Both the position numbers and the translations under genes were made by a program. Below the pieces are notes generated by a model. The model saw only the letters and a program-made list of their open reading frames with translations, was not told the DNA's origin and did no database searches. 64,000 nucleotides of DNA from Myxococcus hansupus (lineage in GTDB: Bacteria > Myxococcota > Myxococcia > Myxococcales > Myxococcaceae), in assembly GCF_000280925.3 (NCBI RefSeq), contig NZ_CP012109.1:7646501-7710500 (forward strand), in the 5' to 3' direction. This document shows, one piece after another, positions 3-4,819 of this stretch. Positions within the stretch are counted from its first letter, which is position 1. Every line of letters begins with the position of its first letter.

Positions 3-596
3 TCGGACCTCTACAGCATGGCCCGTGACGTGGTGGACACCGCGCGGGCGCAGGGCTTCGACGGTGCGTTCGATTGGGTGGGGCACTCCCTGGGCGGCCG
101 CGTGTCGCTCGCGGCGAGCCTGCATGTCCCGGAGGCGGTCCGCAGGGTGTCGCTGTTGGACATCGCGCCGGGGCCCGTCCCGGGTGACTTGTCGGAGAGC
201 GGGAAGGTGCTGGGCATCCTGCTCCAGGCACCGGCCCGGGCGGAGAACCGCCGGGCGATGCGCGCGGAGCTCACGGGGCGAGGGTTGTCGGAGCCGCTGT
301 CGGACTGGCTGCTGATGAACCTGGTGACGACGGACAGCGGCGTGCAGTGGCGCTTCGACCGGCAGGCGCTGGCGGAGCTGCACTCGCGCGTGAATGGCAC
401 GGACCTATGGGCGGCGGTGGAGCGCAAGGACGGTCCCCCCACGCGCTGCCTCCGGGGTGACCGGTCCAAGTACGTGACGGACGCGGACGTGGAGCGCATG
501 GTGGCCGCGGGCTGCCCGGTGGAACATCTCCCGGAGGCCGGCCACTTCGTCCATGTGGACGCGCCGAAGGAAGTGCTCGCATGGGTGATGCGCTGA
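3..596 (+). CDS. alpha/beta hydrolase (5'-truncated by window edge)
   Basis: C-terminal part of a predicted alpha/beta-hydrolase fold enzyme, probably an esterase; the frame is open to the window edge, so the real start lies outside. The nucleophile elbow reads GHSLGG, with the serine codon at 87-89, followed by the usual small-residue helix. A candidate catalytic histidine sits in GHFVHVDAP (codon 543-545), and LRGDRSKYV upstream resembles the acid-residue region of YbfF/BphD-type esterases. Residues before the elbow, including the oxyanion strand, are not visible. The substrate cannot be deduced. The gene is followed by about 180 bases without a gene before the SitA-like gene, so the two are probably not co-transcribed. 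The fold is certain; the exact enzyme is not. Confidence 0.85.
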   Translation, partial: SDLYSMARDVVDTARAQGFDGAFDWVGHSLGGRVSLAASLHVPEAVRRVSLLDIAPGPVPGDLSESGKVLGILLQAPARAENRRAMRAELTGRGLSEPLSDWLLMNLVTTDSGVQWRFDRQALAELHSRVNGTDLWAAVERKDGPPTRCLRGDRSKYVTDADVERMVAAGCPVEHLPEAGHFVHVDAPKEVLAWVMR

Positions 597-775
597 GCGC
601 TGGCTGAATCTGAAGGACTCGCCAGCCGCGCGCATCGACGGCGGCGCTGGCGCCCATGTCCAGCGTCGCGGGCAGACCGGAACGGGTGGCGCCGGGCACA
701 TATGTCATTGGCGGATGGTGATATGCGCTTGAGTCGAAAGACTGAAGCCCTCACCTTTGCTGAGAGGACATGGCC

Positions 776-1699
776 ATGCGCTTCCGGATGTGCGGTGCCG
801 TCTTTCTTCTGCTCATCTTCTCGGCCTGCGCTGCGACGGAGCCCATCCCGAAAGCGCCAGCAGTACGCAATCGGAGGGTTGCCAACCTGCAGCGAGCAGC
901 GACGCTGCCCTGGCGGGATGGCGGGCACTGTGTTGTCCAGGAAGCCAGCCAACCCTGGCCCATTCTCGTGGAGCGATGCTATCGAGCCCTCGACCACGAC
1001 CGGGTCGAATTTCACGACACGACGGGAAGCTGCGCGGTTGCCTCAGCGGGCGCCGCTGCCGTCGGCGTCGGGCTTTGCGTGCTGATGGCTCCTGAAATCG
1101 TCGTGGGAGCAGTCATCGTCCTTGGCGTGATGGTGGTCGCCGTCGCCATCAAGGAGGAACTGAAGGCGTATGAGCTGCGCCACCTTGCCCCCGAGGAAGC
1201 AGGAGCCACGAGAGGCACGAAGGCACTCCCCCAGGAAGCGCAAGCGCAACGCAAGCCCACACGAGAACCTGAGCCAGCAGGGCAGGACTGGCAGCCTCCG
1301 ATTCCGCCTGCGACCGTGGACCGGCCGCGCCACGCCCGTTGCGAACCGGTTCCGGTGCCTCACCGTGGTGGGGACGACAAACACAACGAGTGCGCCGATA
1401 CGTTTCCGCCGAACCGGTATCCCGGCAACGACGTACTCGTGAACGGCAAGCGTTTTGATGCACTGCAGGTTGGCGCGCGCGTCCTCTGGGAAATCAAGAT
1501 CTACCAGTTTGAAACGTACAGTGACTTCCTGCGGGTTCGGGTGGTCGAGAACCAGGTGCTAGAGTTCCAGGAGGACCGTGACGTGGCGGCAGCGTGTGGC
1601 TATGGCTTCGCTGTCGGGGTGAGCAGTGCCGCGCACCAAGAAGCACTCCTGGAACAAGACCCCAGCCTTAGAATCGTCGTCACGGGATGCACACGATGA
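776..1699 (+). CDS. SitA-like polymorphic toxin lipoprotein (DUF6310-type C-terminus)
   Basis: Predicted lipoprotein toxin of the myxobacterial Sit type, which passes between kin cells by outer-membrane exchange. A lipoprotein signal peptide ends at IFSAC (Cys18). Residues about 85-125 form a long hydrophobic Ala/Val/Gly-rich stretch. A Pro/Glu-rich linker (about 145-185) leads to a C-terminal domain with HNECADTFPPNRYPGNDVLV and a WEIK motif, like DUF6310/restriction-endonuclease-fold toxin domains. The start at 776 is preferred over 770 because GAGAGG (762-767) is 8 nt from it and only 2 nt from the other. The next gene starts within this stop codon (ATGA), as toxin/immunity pairs often do. 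No SitB-like gene is present. Family assignment is from memory of sequence patterns; toxicity is inferred. Confidence 0.75.
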   Translation: MRFRMCGAVFLLLIFSACAATEPIPKAPAVRNRRVANLQRAATLPWRDGGHCVVQEASQPWPILVERCYRALDHDRVEFHDTTGSCAVASAGAAAVGVGLCVLMAPEIVVGAVIVLGVMVVAVAIKEELKAYELRHLAPEEAGATRGTKALPQEAQAQRKPTREPEPAGQDWQPPIPPATVDRPRHARCEPVPVPHRGGDDKHNECADTFPPNRYPGNDVLVNGKRFDALQVGARVLWEIKIYQFETYSDFLRVRVVENQVLEFQEDRDVAAACGYGFAVGVSSAAHQEALLEQDPSLRIVVTGCTR

Positions 1700-2451
1700 C
1701 CACGCCACAGCGCCTGATTCTGACCGCCTATGCGCCAAACCTCGTGGGATCTGATGGCCGCACACTCGCCATCGTCCGGGGCATGGAACAGGCGCTGCCT
1801 GGCTTGCGCCTGGAATGGGAAGTAGGCGATGGAGGACAGCCCATCGAGTTACCGCACCGCGCGGCATGGCTCGCCGACGCCGCAACACGCGGACGGTTCC
1901 CACTCCTGTGCAACGGCGACGCGAGCTACCCCGTGACCGTCTCCGGGATGCGACGCTCCGCATCTGCGAGCCCTCGCGGCCAGCCACAGCTCCAAATCCA
2001 CGCGAAGTTGCCGCTGGACGCGGCCGTCCGCGCGGCAGCGAAGGCCATGATTGAAGCCGTGGCGGAGGGCGCTCACGCCTTTTGGGGACATGCCACACCG
2101 GATGACGCCGCCCTGGACATCGCGCACCAGATAGCGCCCACGCTGGAAGGGCCACCAGCCCCACGCCGGGGTCTGCCCGCACTGAAGCTCTTCGATCGCG
2201 TCCGCGCGCCAGAGATTCCCTACTATCTCGGATGGCTGAACTACTGGTCGGCCGCCGCCGCGCGGGCCATCGGGTTTCCAGACGCGGCTCGCGATGCCGA
2301 CCTGCTCTCTCGGGCGCGCCGTACGGAGACGGGCGGCTGGGTCGTGCAGCTCACGGAAGCGCCGCTCGACTTGGAAGACCCGGCCCACCTGGAAGCGCTC
2401 AAGCAAGCCTACGAGCGATTCCCTGAGATTGGCGCGCGCACGTCGCCTTGA
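1696..2451 (+). CDS. DUF5953-like protein, candidate immunity partner
   Basis: Soluble protein of 251 residues with no signal peptide or membrane segment, resembling the DUF5953 family of myxobacteria. Its start ATG at 1696 overlaps the upstream toxin stop (ATGA), so translation is probably coupled; the ATG at 1687 is less likely. The N-terminus (LILTAYAPNLVGSDGRTLA) and the segment around residues 170-195 (PALKLFDRVRAPEIPYYLGW) are its most distinctive parts. Position directly behind a SitA-like lipoprotein suggests it is the cognate immunity protein, since Sit loci pair a toxin lipoprotein with a downstream immunity gene. Immunity function is inferred from position only; it could also be a duplicated myxobacterial protein of other function. 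Confidence 0.75.
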   Translation: MTTPQRLILTAYAPNLVGSDGRTLAIVRGMEQALPGLRLEWEVGDGGQPIELPHRAAWLADAATRGRFPLLCNGDASYPVTVSGMRRSASASPRGQPQLQIHAKLPLDAAVRAAAKAMIEAVAEGAHAFWGHATPDDAALDIAHQIAPTLEGPPAPRRGLPALKLFDRVRAPEIPYYLGWLNYWSAAAARAIGFPDAARDADLLSRARRTETGGWVVQLTEAPLDLEDPAHLEALKQAYERFPEIGARTSP

Positions 2452-2551
2452 ACCGGGCCAAGAAGCATCCGTCTCCTGACCGCTGAGGCAAGCGGTGTCG
2501 GGCGGCATCGCCGCGAAGCGCGTATGCCCCGCCCGGCCACGCCGCCGACTG

Positions 2552-4732
2552 TCAGATGCGCACGCCCAGCAGCAGGCCCGGCCACATGCGGATGCCGCCG
2601 GGCCCCTTGCCGAGCTTCCACTGCGGCAACCAGCTCACGTTCCGGTCCTCGTCCTGGGACGAAGGGTCATACGCGTTGAGGGACACACCGCCGAAGAGCG
2701 CGAAGCGGCGGCGCAGCTCCCAGCCCAGCGTGGCGCGCATCCGGAACAGGGTGTTCTTGGGGCCCGAGCCATAGAAGTTCGGCTGCCAGCTCCCGTATGA
2801 CAGGTCCACGTCCAGCGAGTAGCGGTCCGCCATGTCCAACGGGAAGTGCACCCCCAATCCCAGGTTGAGGAAGGTGCGCAGCGAGTCCTCGCCGATGCCC
2901 ACGCCCGTGGTGGCCAGCACGTACACCGTCCGGCTCCCGTACTTGATGCCCACCGACAAAGGCATCACATCGTCGGCGGACAGCTCGAGCACGAAGCGCC
3001 CCTTGCGGACGATGCTCAGCAGCCCCAGGGGCACCGACACGTCATCGGCGATGTTGATGAGGCCCAACTGCACGCCGCGCACGTCGGCCGCCACGTTGAT
3101 GAGGCCCACCTGCGCGCCCGTGACGTCGCCGGAGATGTTGATGAGCCCCACCTGCGCGCCCGCGAGCCGCTCCGCCAGGTTGATGCCCGCGGCCGCCTGG
3201 AAGCCCTGGAGGCTCGACGCGGCGCGGTTCGCGGTGATGCTCACCTGGAAGCCCTTGAAATCGCGCTCGGTCATGTTGAAGACGGCGGAGACCTGCCCGC
3301 CCGTCCCGCCGCCGAACGCGAGGTTCCCGCCGAACGCCGTCTGGAGTCCGAAAATCTCTCCGCCCGCCACGTTCGCCACGCCAGACACCTGGAACCCCTC
3401 CACCGTCCCATCCACCCAGCCCACGCCCGCGGAGGCGCCCAGCCCCTGGAGCTGCACCGAGCGCACGCCCAGCACGCCCAACGCCAGGTGGTTGCGCCCA
3501 CCCCCGCCCTTGAGCGAGCCCGTGGCCAGCGGCGGCACCAGCGACAGGTTCAAGGGCACGGAGGGCACCTCCAACCGCGCCACCGGCTCTCCCGTGGACA
3601 GCGCCTCCGCCCGCACGCCCGTGCCACCCCGCGCCGCCGTGCGCGTCAACGTCACGGGCACGAAGTGCTCGGCGCGCAGCTCCGAGCCGCCCTTCGGAGA
3701 CACCGTCAGCTCCGCCTCGAGGCGCTGCGAGGGCCGCTCCAGCACCACATGGTAACGCCCCGCCTCCAGCCCCAACGCCAGACGCCGGCCCGCGGGCTTC
3801 TGCAGCTCGGCGACGAGCTGGTTGCCCCAGTCCCGCACGAAGAGGCGCCCCTGCACGTCCTCCGCCACGGTGAGGCGCACGCGGGAGCTGCGCAGGTCCG
3901 TCAGCACCAGGTCGCCACTGCCCGCGAGCTGGATGTCGTAGGCGGCGTGCTGCGGCCCCCCTTGCGAGCGCTCCGTGCGCGCCAACGTTTCATGGAAGGC
4001 GAACTGGTAGGCCTCGTGCAACGTGACGCGGCCATCGCCGCTGGAGTCCGCTGCGCCGCGCAGCCCCGTCACCAGGAAGTGCGTGAAGAAGGACGCGCCG
4101 ATGCTGTCCGACTCCTGCGCCACTTCATTCGCCGAGCTGGAGGCCAGGTACGCGTGGCCTCGCACCTGGGACGACGCATCCGTGAGGAAGCCGGGCCGGT
4201 GCACGCCGCCCTTGAAGCGCGTCAGCCCGCCGGAGCCACACGAATCCAGAATCGCGATGCGCACGTCCACGGGCACCGCGCGCAGGCCCTGCTTCAGCGC
4301 GTCGTAGGACAGCCGCTCACCGCGCGGCAGCAGGCCGTCTTCATCCGAATGCCCCGAGTAGTAGAGCACCAGCTCGCTGCGCACGCCCTCCGCGTTCGCG
4401 GTCTCCACCAGCACCCGCATCCGCTCCAGCGCCGCGAGCAGCCCCTTGCGGTCCGCCTCCAGCAGCAACACGCGGTCCGCCACCGCCACGCCGCCCAGCT
4501 CCTCCAGCACGCGTGACATGGCGAGCGCATCCGAGCCCGCGTAGCGCAGCCGCTCACGGCCCTCGCCGCCCTCACTGGAGCCCACGAGGAGCGCGAAGCG
4601 GCGCAGCGTCACCGCGGGCTCCGCCACCGGCTGCGTGGCCGCGGCGGACGCCTGCCCCCAGACGCCCAGGCACACGGCCGCCAGCAGCCCCGCCAGGCGG
4701 ACCCATCCTCCCGCAGTGGTGCGTCCCATCAT
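2552..4732 (-). CDS. caspase-like (C14) protease fused to a beta-barrel-like repeat region
   Basis: Exported protein of about 726 residues. After a signal peptide (LAGLLAAVCLGVWGQASA) comes a peptidase C14/caspase-fold domain (about residues 45-270) with both catalytic motifs: His127 in YYSGHSDEDG and Cys164 in ILDSCGSG. A calcium-site-like SSGDGRVTLHEA follows. The middle is beta-rich. From about residue 430 on there are many repeats of the form GxQxGxxN (for example GAQVGLINISGD), as in LA_2272-type surface repeats. The last 130 residues alternate like outer-membrane beta strands. Start chosen at the first of two adjacent ATGs (4732, 4729) just before the signal peptide. It lies 87 nt behind the lipoprotein ending the Ton operon on the same strand. 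Substrate and topology are unknown. Confidence 0.85.
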   Translation of the reverse strand: MMGRTTAGGWVRLAGLLAAVCLGVWGQASAAATQPVAEPAVTLRRFALLVGSSEGGEGRERLRYAGSDALAMSRVLEELGGVAVADRVLLLEADRKGLLAALERMRVLVETANAEGVRSELVLYYSGHSDEDGLLPRGERLSYDALKQGLRAVPVDVRIAILDSCGSGGLTRFKGGVHRPGFLTDASSQVRGHAYLASSSANEVAQESDSIGASFFTHFLVTGLRGAADSSGDGRVTLHEAYQFAFHETLARTERSQGGPQHAAYDIQLAGSGDLVLTDLRSSRVRLTVAEDVQGRLFVRDWGNQLVAELQKPAGRRLALGLEAGRYHVVLERPSQRLEAELTVSPKGGSELRAEHFVPVTLTRTAARGGTGVRAEALSTGEPVARLEVPSVPLNLSLVPPLATGSLKGGGGRNHLALGVLGVRSVQLQGLGASAGVGWVDGTVEGFQVSGVANVAGGEIFGLQTAFGGNLAFGGGTGGQVSAVFNMTERDFKGFQVSITANRAASSLQGFQAAAGINLAERLAGAQVGLINISGDVTGAQVGLINVAADVRGVQLGLINIADDVSVPLGLLSIVRKGRFVLELSADDVMPLSVGIKYGSRTVYVLATTGVGIGEDSLRTFLNLGLGVHFPLDMADRYSLDVDLSYGSWQPNFYGSGPKNTLFRMRATLGWELRRRFALFGGVSLNAYDPSSQDEDRNVSWLPQWKLGKGPGGIRMWPGLLLGVRI

Positions 4733-4819
4733 CCGCGTCCCGCCCCACGCGTCAGGCCCGGCCAGCCCCACGTGTGCCCCCTCGGCATATCTCGACTGAT
4801 GTCCCGGCGCGAGCCCGGC

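What the first reader, a model, noticed from the sequence alone, without database searches (positions are those of the whole stretch)
776..2451. SitA-like toxin lipoprotein with overlapping DUF5953-like partner, a likely kin-recognition pair
Seen: lipobox Cys18, long hydrophobic segment, distinct C-terminal domain and an ATGA overlap with the next gene, in a patch less GC-rich than its surroundings. Known: Sit lipoprotein toxins move between Myxococcus cells by TraA/B-dependent outer-membrane exchange and are neutralised by a downstream immunity protein. Inferred: this is such a pair, without SitB.
Basis: partly seen in the sequence, partly recalled or inferred. Interest (0 to 1): 0.7.

Follow-up and report, generated by a model that had tools for sequence, protein, structure and literature searches.

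The report
Myxobacterial lipoprotein nuclease toxin and immunity
Two overlapping genes in a social soil bacterium very probably encode a nucleic-acid-cutting toxin carried on an outer-membrane lipoprotein and the matching antidote, one of a large family of swappable toxin-antidote pairs by which related strains probably tell self from non-self.

Summary
In detail: ORF 776-1699 is a lipoprotein with a C-terminal DUF6310 domain; ORF 1696-2451 is DUF5953, overlapping by ATGA. New here: AlphaFold models of the two proteins match the two partners of one solved complex, the nuclease-immunity pair TseT-TsiT (Z 11.4 and 14.1), although neither matches those families by sequence. FD[AG]L...W[ED][VI]K is in 115 of 115 DUF6310 domains examined (the window's included), and all 115 have DUF5953 directly downstream. 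Broken toxin beside intact partner is seen 9 times in 124 loci, the reverse never. Partner distances follow the toxin domain (r 0.61) far more than the carrier (0.12). Carriers also bear other C-termini. The pair sits at an intergenic site that is near-empty in 17 of 27 genus genomes; in one genome the same site holds a recognised SitA5-Imm11 pair. The genome has traA, a traB-like gene and nine SitA6 genes. So toxin-immunity is well supported; delivery by outer-membrane exchange fits but was not shown. Identity with published SitA7 is open (paper not held).

The parts
624..2551 (.). Inserted segment (approximate ends) between an alpha/beta-hydrolase gene and a convergent caspase-domain gene
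   Evidence: In L323, L324, L326 and L327 the DNA matching window 3-623 is followed at once by DNA matching 2552 onwards; junction alignment
776..1699 (+). Lipoprotein toxin gene (DUF6310 protein, 307 aa)
776..829 (+). Type II signal peptide and lipobox ending at Cys18; +2 Ala, +7 Ile
   Evidence: over the 115 ORFs (window included) my script found a complete lipobox in 95; Lys at +2 in 0 of 95, Ala at +7 in 9 of 95
830..1330 (+). N-terminal carrier ('escort'-type) region, type ED-A, with a hydrophobic segment (about 1037-1150) and a Pro-rich linker of low model confidence
   Evidence: A1 alignment; pLDDT under 50 at residues 15-28, 81-124, 126-129 and 137-184
1331..1696 (+). Predicted nuclease domain (DUF6310), PD-(D/E)XK fold, TseT-like
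   Evidence: model; fold match Z 11.4
1457..1498 (+). Predicted active-site codons: Asp228 (1457-1459), Glu239 (1490-1492), Lys241 (1496-1498)
   Evidence: D228 and K241 invariant in the 70 sequences of A1; FD[AG]L...W[ED][VI]K in 115 of 115
1696..2451 (+). Immunity gene (DUF5953, 251 aa, no signal peptide seen by eye), Imm52/TsiT-like fold
1696..1699 (+). ATGA overlap coupling the two genes
   Evidence: 4-base overlap in 60 of 115 and 1-base gap in 50 of 115

Best explanation
The two genes are a polymorphic toxin-immunity cassette. [quoted passage not shown] On contact between cells with compatible TraA receptors it is handed over with outer-membrane material. Its N-terminal carrier region helps the C-terminal domain into the cytoplasm, where that domain, a PD-(D/E)XK nuclease related in fold to TseT, cuts nucleic acid (Asp228, Glu239, Lys241). 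The second protein stays in the cytoplasm of sister cells, binds the nuclease domain and blocks it, as TsiT does TseT. Coupled translation keeps toxin and antidote in step. Shown here: lipoprotein signal, domain and predicted fold, catalytic motif, pairing, co-variation of partner with toxin domain, asymmetric decay, exchange of C-termini, presence/absence at one site, host traA. Inferred: nuclease activity, neutralisation, outer-membrane-exchange delivery, kin discrimination.
For: Pfam DUF6310 + DUF5953. AF2 models match both halves of PA3907-PA3908: toxin Z 11.4 over 116 residues, next row 7.3, a repair endonuclease; partner Z 14.1 over 204 residues, tied with PA0821 14.3 and BPSL2088 14.1, first row outside this group 5.2. 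Partner gene directly downstream in 115 of 115. Of 124 loci 111 have both intact, 9 have partner intact with toxin broken or gone, 0 the reverse, 4 both broken. Distance correlations in 80 pairs: warhead-partner 0.61, carrier-partner 0.12, carrier-warhead 0.10; within the partner the peak is at residues 61-90, not at the end next to the toxin gene. Three carrier types with one warhead family; carriers A and B with other C-termini. Near-empty site in relatives, and a SitA5-AHH/Imm11 pair at the same site in G118. TraA 1118.8 bits, cut-off 750, overlapping a TraB-like gene. Nine SitA6 genes.
Against: No sequence-level match to Tox-REase-5, Imm52 or a solved chain: best PDB sequence E-values were 0.038 or worse. 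Foldseek alone was weak for the toxin (best E 0.015, none at 0.001 or better). Fold similarity does not show activity. The window protein is not matched by the SitA5 or SitA6 models; carriers share nothing with SitA6 that the profile comparison could find; the other four SitA families could not be compared. The carrier is about 180 residues against about 375 stated for SitA (PMC8546572), though the SitA5 escort model is only 262 long. Nothing here tests transfer, toxicity or immunity. The own genome holds one DUF6310. The insertion site also takes other genes (G133), so the site alone does not mark a toxin. The small carrier-warhead and carrier-partner correlations also exceed nearly all permutations (999 and 993 of 999).
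Confidence: 0.75

Rival explanations
1. A true nuclease-immunity pair, but not delivered by outer-membrane exchange: released in vesicles or by lysis, or carried by another contact system such as the type VI secretion system.
For: TseT itself is a type VI effector (PMC9990079, passages). No transfer assay of this family was found.
Against: Type II signal peptide; no Lys at +2 in 95 of 95; no other domain above cut-off in the window protein; host has traA and a traB-like gene.
Confidence: 0.12
2. The pair is a known SitAI family (SitA7, described as non-modular with a predicted DNase) and only lacks a name in the databases. This does not exclude the best explanation; it concerns novelty.
For: SitA7 is one of three SitA families with a single toxin-domain family and a predicted DNase (PMC8546572, passages). 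A TseT relative is affected by DNA methylation (PMC9990079, passage), which would suit the DNA-modification idea proposed for SitA7.
Against: [quoted passage not shown] Carrier A is not strictly non-modular.
Confidence: 0.35
3. An intracellular toxin-antitoxin or addiction module whose first protein happens to be a lipoprotein.
For: Tight overlap and small operon.
Against: An export signal would remove the toxin from its own cytoplasm; carrier and warhead vary almost independently, which an internal module would not need.
Confidence: 0.05
4. An ordinary envelope lipoprotein with a helper protein, not a toxin.
For: No activity has been shown.
Against: Both partners match one solved toxin-immunity complex; asymmetric decay; 1 to at least 20 divergent copies per genome.
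Confidence: 0.03

Closest known systems
SitA/SitI toxin-immunity pairs of myxobacteria (outer-membrane exchange)
   Same: Lipoprotein signal of the outer-membrane type, N-terminal carrier plus C-terminal nuclease-like domain, immunity gene directly downstream, many alleles per genome, SitB optional, host with traA (PMC5562445, PMC8546572, passages); one SitA5-Imm11 pair occupies the same chromosomal site in G118
   Different: Not matched by the SitA5 or SitA6 models; carriers unrelated to SitA6; the other SitA carriers not available for comparison; transfer untested
TseT-TsiT (PA3907-PA3908), Tox-REase-5 with Imm52
   Same: Predicted folds of both partners; D...(E/D)xK motif; one nuclease with one partner protein
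   Different: 10-16% identity; no Pfam match of the window proteins to those families; TseT is delivered by type VI secretion, this is a lipoprotein
SitA3 allele Mf1, whose toxin domain is reported as PF15648 (Tox-REase-5)
   Same: A lipoprotein toxin of the same host group with a warhead of the same named fold class (PMC8546572, figure legend seen)
CDI/Rhs polymorphic toxins (recalled, not tested here)
   Same: Carrier kept while C-terminal toxin and immunity are exchanged, with remnants of old immunity genes left behind
   Different: No CdiA, Rhs or PAAR part found in the window protein

Membership tests
SitA toxins (outer-membrane exchange) | Lipobox / type II signal peptide | tested here: met
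   Cys18. Of the 115 ORFs, window included, 95 had a complete lipobox by my script; the other 20 are mostly frame-broken, truncated or at a contig edge, a few missed by the pattern or start rule
SitA toxins (outer-membrane exchange) | Outer-membrane sorting: no Lys at +2, no Ala at +7 (rule as given in PMC5562445) | tested here: met
   Window: Ala +2, Ile +7. Family: Lys +2 in 0 of 95; Ala +7 in 9 of 95, which do not meet the rule
SitA toxins (outer-membrane exchange) | Immunity gene immediately downstream | tested here: met
   DUF5953 in 115 of 115; immunity function itself not tested
SitA toxins (outer-membrane exchange) | C-terminal nuclease domain | tested here: inconclusive
   Predicted PD-(D/E)XK fold, Z 11.4 to TseT, motif in 115 of 115; activity not tested
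SitA toxins (outer-membrane exchange) | Escort domain homologous to one of the six published families | tested here: inconclusive
   No match to NF050093 (SitA5 escort) or TIGR02269 (SitA6) at E 1 or better, and no relation to the nine SitA6 proteins by profile comparison; SitA1/2, 3, 4 and 7 sequences not held
SitA toxins (outer-membrane exchange) | Host encodes traAB | tested here: met
   TraA NF033759, 1118.8 bits; overlapping gene with OmpA domain and a TSP-3 motif, taken as TraB by architecture; not tested in the other genomes
SitA toxins (outer-membrane exchange) | TraAB-dependent transfer and killing | not testable with these tools
   Needs co-culture
Tox-REase-5 (PF15648) | Sequence profile match | tested here: not met
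   Window protein: no PF15648 hit at E 1 or better.
Tox-REase-5 (PF15648) | Restriction-endonuclease fold with D and ExK | tested here: met
   Predicted model only
Imm52 (PF15579; accession recalled) | Sequence profile match | tested here: not met
   No Imm52 hit at E 1 or better for any of 78 members
Imm52 (PF15579; accession recalled) | Fold of TsiT (PA3908) | tested here: met
   Predicted model only; Z 14.1, rmsd 3.3, 204 residues to 9oz0_A; 12.3 to 6jdp
DUF6310 / DUF5953 | Pfam profile over curated cut-off | tested here: met
   188.1 bits (cut-off 27) and 382.8 bits (cut-off 25)

The most novel reading that the evidence does not exclude
DUF6310/DUF5953 is a further family of outer-membrane-exchange toxins, not among the six published SitA families. 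It has at least three unrelated lipoprotein carriers (ED-A, ED-B, ED-C). Carriers and warheads are exchanged as cassettes between constant arms: the carrier upstream and the conserved last third of the immunity gene downstream, which stays behind as a remnant when a new toxin with an ankyrin-repeat partner moves in. Such pairs take turns with other toxin pairs (SitA5-Imm11) at the same chromosomal site.
Probability: 0.4. Interest if true: 0.65.

Novelty: new member of a known kind. Interest (0 to 1): 0.5.

Why it matters
It suggests a function for two Pfam families of unknown function found in 57 (DUF6310) and 60 (DUF5953) of 195 genomes of the phylum sample, with 1 to at least 20 DUF6310 copies per genome. 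It links myxobacterial lipoprotein toxins to a solved nuclease-immunity complex, so specificity residues can be chosen and tested. A single pair in a host with traA, at a site that is near-empty in 17 of 27 relatives and holds a SitA5 pair in another, is a simple test bed for how one acquired pair creates a new self/non-self boundary.

Tried and rejected
TraA search: PA14 hits (L065, L066) and the second-best MYXO-CTERM hit (L353/L371, 2 Cys) were not TraA. OmpA neighbours first gave none; later the region upstream of L248 held it.

Weak family hits (Rv2743c, DUF2561, PspM, GltJ) were rejected: below cut-off. PHROGs gave one hit at E 0.19, PADLOC none. No relative of the toxin in viral contigs or phages, none of the partner in plasmids. 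Solved-structure sequence searches gave nothing at E under 0.038. A promoter/terminator scan gave 0 and 1, against 0.2 and 1.0 in shuffles. No direct repeat of 7 bases or more was found between the two ends (shorter ones not sought), so no mobile-element class is claimed. The first regular expression for the active site had the wrong spacing and matched 0 of 115; corrected, it matched 115 of 115.

Limits of the counts. The loci came from the best-scoring rows (lists cut; at most 20 DUF6310 and 13 DUF5953 candidates scored per genome), not from all matches, which favours intact copies of whichever family seeded the locus. The 115 domains are those over 100 bits; one is the window's own and 4 do not span the model (L040, L056, L080, L131). 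In one search, loci with under 600 bases upstream were dropped. In one search only 80 type-A pairs with usable ends were used. Carrier C was not searched in genomes. The carrier counts cover the 60 loci fetched, not every row.

Between window and G125, dN/dS was 0.08 in the warhead, 0.32 in the carrier, 0.19 in the partner, and 0.08 and 0.16 in the two flanking genes, so no claim of positive selection on the warhead is made. Synonymous diversity in the last window of DUF5953 is only mildly lower (0.36 against 0.44-0.58 elsewhere in that gene), so the constant-arm idea is weakly supported.

Papers. PNAS 2019 (PMC6900543) and ISME J 2020 (PMC7490427), cited for the SitA families and mobile loci, are not held. 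A search for DUF6310/DUF5953 found 0 papers. Seen as passages: PMC8546572, PMC10433427, PMC10047993, PMC3482391, PMC9635880, PMC9990079, PMC6372800. PMC5562445: outline, passages, sections 9 and 26. PMC12077181: part 1 of 2. Others only in search listings.

Full report
What is there. The window opens with the end of an alpha/beta hydrolase gene (3-596) and, after the pair, runs into a convergent caspase-domain gene (2552-4771, minus strand). Between them lie ORF 776-1699 and ORF 1696-2451, overlapping by ATGA. The first protein has a lipoprotein signal ending at Cys18, a hydrophobic stretch, a Pro-rich linker and a C-terminal DUF6310 domain. The second is DUF5953 along nearly its whole length. 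No NCBIfam model above cut-off, no PHROGs family under E 1 for the toxin (one at 0.19 for the partner) and no PADLOC model names either. GC of the pair is 65.6% against 69.9% in the window, a modest dip.

Distribution. The window lies in a one-contig genome of 9,490,432 bases. I recall that size as Myxococcus (now Pseudomyxococcus) hansupus; no call confirms the identity. The genome has one DUF6310 and two DUF5953 matches, the second a fragment of about 100 residues at 9338077. In the phylum sample DUF6310 is in 57 of 195 genomes and DUF5953 in 60 of 195 (59 over the cut-off), all of them in the same family, with 1 to 20 DUF6310 matches per genome, 20 being the scoring cap. Within the genus DUF6310 is in 19 of 27. 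Named relatives, from the 80 kept of 157, include Corallococcus, Myxococcus, Pyxidicoccus, Archangium, Citreicoccus and Hyalangium.

Pairing and decay. From the loci fetched (best-scoring rows, not all matches) I obtained 115 distinct DUF6310 domains over 100 bits, the window's own included; 111 of them span the model. All 115 have DUF5953 directly downstream on the same strand, with a 4-base overlap in 60 and a 1-base gap in 50. The two spacings follow two classes of warhead ending: 38 of 39 and 38 of 41. Of 124 distinct DUF5953 loci with enough upstream DNA, 111 have both intact, 9 have DUF5953 intact with the toxin domain broken or missing, none has the reverse, and 4 have both broken. Losing the toxin is tolerated and losing the partner is not, as expected of toxin and immunity. 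The loci were picked by score, so the ratio is indicative.

Fold. AlphaFold2 on own and fetched relatives gave a confident C-terminal domain (blocks of 90-98 from residue 191) in an otherwise weak model (mean 70.8), and a good DUF5953 model (mean 87.8). For the toxin, Foldseek ranked TseT first and second but weakly (E 0.015 and 0.18); VIA-align gave Z 11.4 (9oz0_B, 2.9 A, 116 residues) and 11.2 (7dym_A), the next row 7.3 being a repair endonuclease. For DUF5953, PA0821 (Z 14.3), BPSL2088 (14.1) and TsiT (9oz0_A 14.1, 3.3 A, 204 residues; 7dym_B 14.1) are tied, and the first row outside this group is 5.2 (Foldseek E 2e-7 to 9e-6). Two separate searches landing on the two halves of one complex is the strongest single result. 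Zhang et al. list Tox-REase-5 with FDG and EAK motifs and with Imm52 as its immunity partner (PMC3482391, passages). Here FD[AG]L...W[ED][VI]K is present in 115 of 115. By sequence neither window protein matches those Pfam families (members), so this is fold kinship, not membership. A review reports that TseT is a DNase, that Burkholderia relatives cut DNA and RNA and need the conserved D and K, and that their DNase activity is affected by methylation (PMC9990079, passages). TsiT is reported to act through the effector's oligomeric state (PMC9635880, passages).

Modularity. Three N-terminal types, alike at most in the signal region, carry the same warhead family: A in 98, B in 6 and C in 8 of 115, with 3 unassigned; a complete lipobox was found in 81 of 98, 6 of 6 and 8 of 8. 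In 80 type-A pairs the warhead-partner distance correlation is 0.61, carrier-partner 0.12 and carrier-warhead 0.10; permutations as high were 0, 6 and 0 of 999, so the two small values are weak but not nil. Windows show the change at the carrier/warhead border and a peak in the partner at residues 61-90, while its last 70 residues are nearly constant. Searching carriers A and B gave other C-termini. Of 34 carrier-A ORFs in the 60 loci fetched had DUF6310, 2 had unrelated C-termini with a new ORF overlapping the toxin stop (L267, L273), and 2 were broken. Carrier B also occurs with a C-terminus weakly like Ntox16 (E 0.003 and 0.03, below cut-off, 2 of 2 scanned) in nine intact loci and one interrupted one (L317). 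In the four loci examined an ORF starts 3 bases after the toxin stop; it is an ankyrin-repeat protein by Pfam in the two scanned. A DUF5953 remnant follows in nine of these ten. That is what cassette replacement leaves behind.

Insertion site. The caspase-gene flank was found in 27 of 27 genus genomes. The pair sits beside it only in G000 and G125. In 17 the hydrolase gene ends within about 130 bases of the caspase gene; in four of these (L323, L324, L326, L327) window 3-623 joins directly to 2552 onwards. In the other 8 (G113, G116, G118, G122, G126, G127, G133, G138) other DNA lies beside the caspase gene; the hydrolase was found on the far side in all 8, the gap being 0.8 to 7.4 kb in the six measured. 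In G118 the insert holds a SitA5-family toxin (NF050093, 202 bits, cut-off 160; scanned from a locus cut at its start) with an AHH nuclease domain and an Imm11 gene. In G138 and G122 it encodes SUKH-domain proteins, a known immunity fold, and in G133 it looks like an iron-receptor operon by eye, not a toxin. So the site is permissive, and more than one toxin-immunity pair has used it. No flanking repeat of 7 bases or more was found. G125 carries a copy at the same site at 88% (toxin) and 92% (partner) protein identity, against 97% and 95% for the flanking proteins.

Host machinery. The genome encodes TraA (NF033759, 1118.8 bits, cut-off 750) overlapping a gene with OmpA and TSP-3 features, the published TraB build (PMC6372800, passages), and nine SitA6 (TIGR02269) genes (the equation of TIGR02269 with SitA6 is from PMC12077181).

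Mechanism and its status. The likely course is: export to the outer membrane, transfer to a TraA-compatible neighbour, entry by way of the carrier, nuclease action in the cytoplasm, and protection of siblings by DUF5953. Lipoprotein signal, predicted fold, motif, pairing, co-variation, decay, module exchange and host machinery rest on the calls above. Transfer, entry, cutting and protection are inferred. I put the toxin-immunity reading alone at about 0.93 and the whole account including exchange at 0.75.

Known or new. It works like a SitA/SitI pair. Membership could not be fully tested: the SitA5 and SitA6 models do not match the window protein, and the other four escort families are not held. 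SitA7, described as non-modular with a predicted DNase (PMC8546572, passages), may be this family. Against that, DUF6310 is missing from 8 of 27 genus genomes although that paper says genomes contain all six families. I therefore file it as a new member of a known kind, with a 0.4 chance of being a distinct family.

Noticed in passing
L343, L378 (G118:C2, between hydrolase and caspase genes): A SitA5-escort toxin with AHH nuclease and an Imm11 gene sits at the same intergenic site as the window's pair; other inserts there include SUKH-domain genes (L335, L333) and unnamed lipoprotein-like ORFs on the other strand (L329, L332, L344, L330).
   Followed up: partly
L267 and L273 (G093:C1:7114051, G095:C2:5103575): Carrier A fused to two unrelated C-termini with no Pfam match, each with an ORF overlapping the toxin stop: candidate new toxin/immunity pairs.
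   Followed up: partly
L293, L294, L299, L302, L306, L309, L313, L315, L316: Carrier B with an Ntox16-like C-terminus and a remnant of the DUF5953 3' end behind; an ORF starts 3 bases after the stop in the four loci examined, ankyrin-repeat in the two scanned.
   Followed up: partly
L004 / L258 around G000:C1:9338077-9338343: Orphan N-terminal DUF5953 fragment in the window's own genome; the only DUF6310 match in that genome is the window's.
   Followed up: partly
L156, L201: Records titled Comamonas sp. KCTC 72670 carry this myxobacterial family. L156 is 88% identical and its contig has the same length (209416) as the G125 contig with the same site, so the title is probably wrong.
   Followed up: no
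DUF5953 residues 181-251 (window about 2236-2448): Last third of the immunity protein is nearly constant (about 90% majority residue) and does not track the warhead; synonymous diversity is mildly low at the very end.
   Followed up: partly
L236, L237, L238, L244, L246: Several proteins with OmpA and TSP-3 repeats besides the one next to TraA; by coordinates L236 and L238 have a MYXO-CTERM match just upstream (L367, L361).
   Followed up: no
window 2552-4771, minus strand: Caspase-domain (Peptidase_C14) protein with a long C-terminal part; DNA from its 3' part matched in 27 of 27 genus genomes searched.
   Followed up: no
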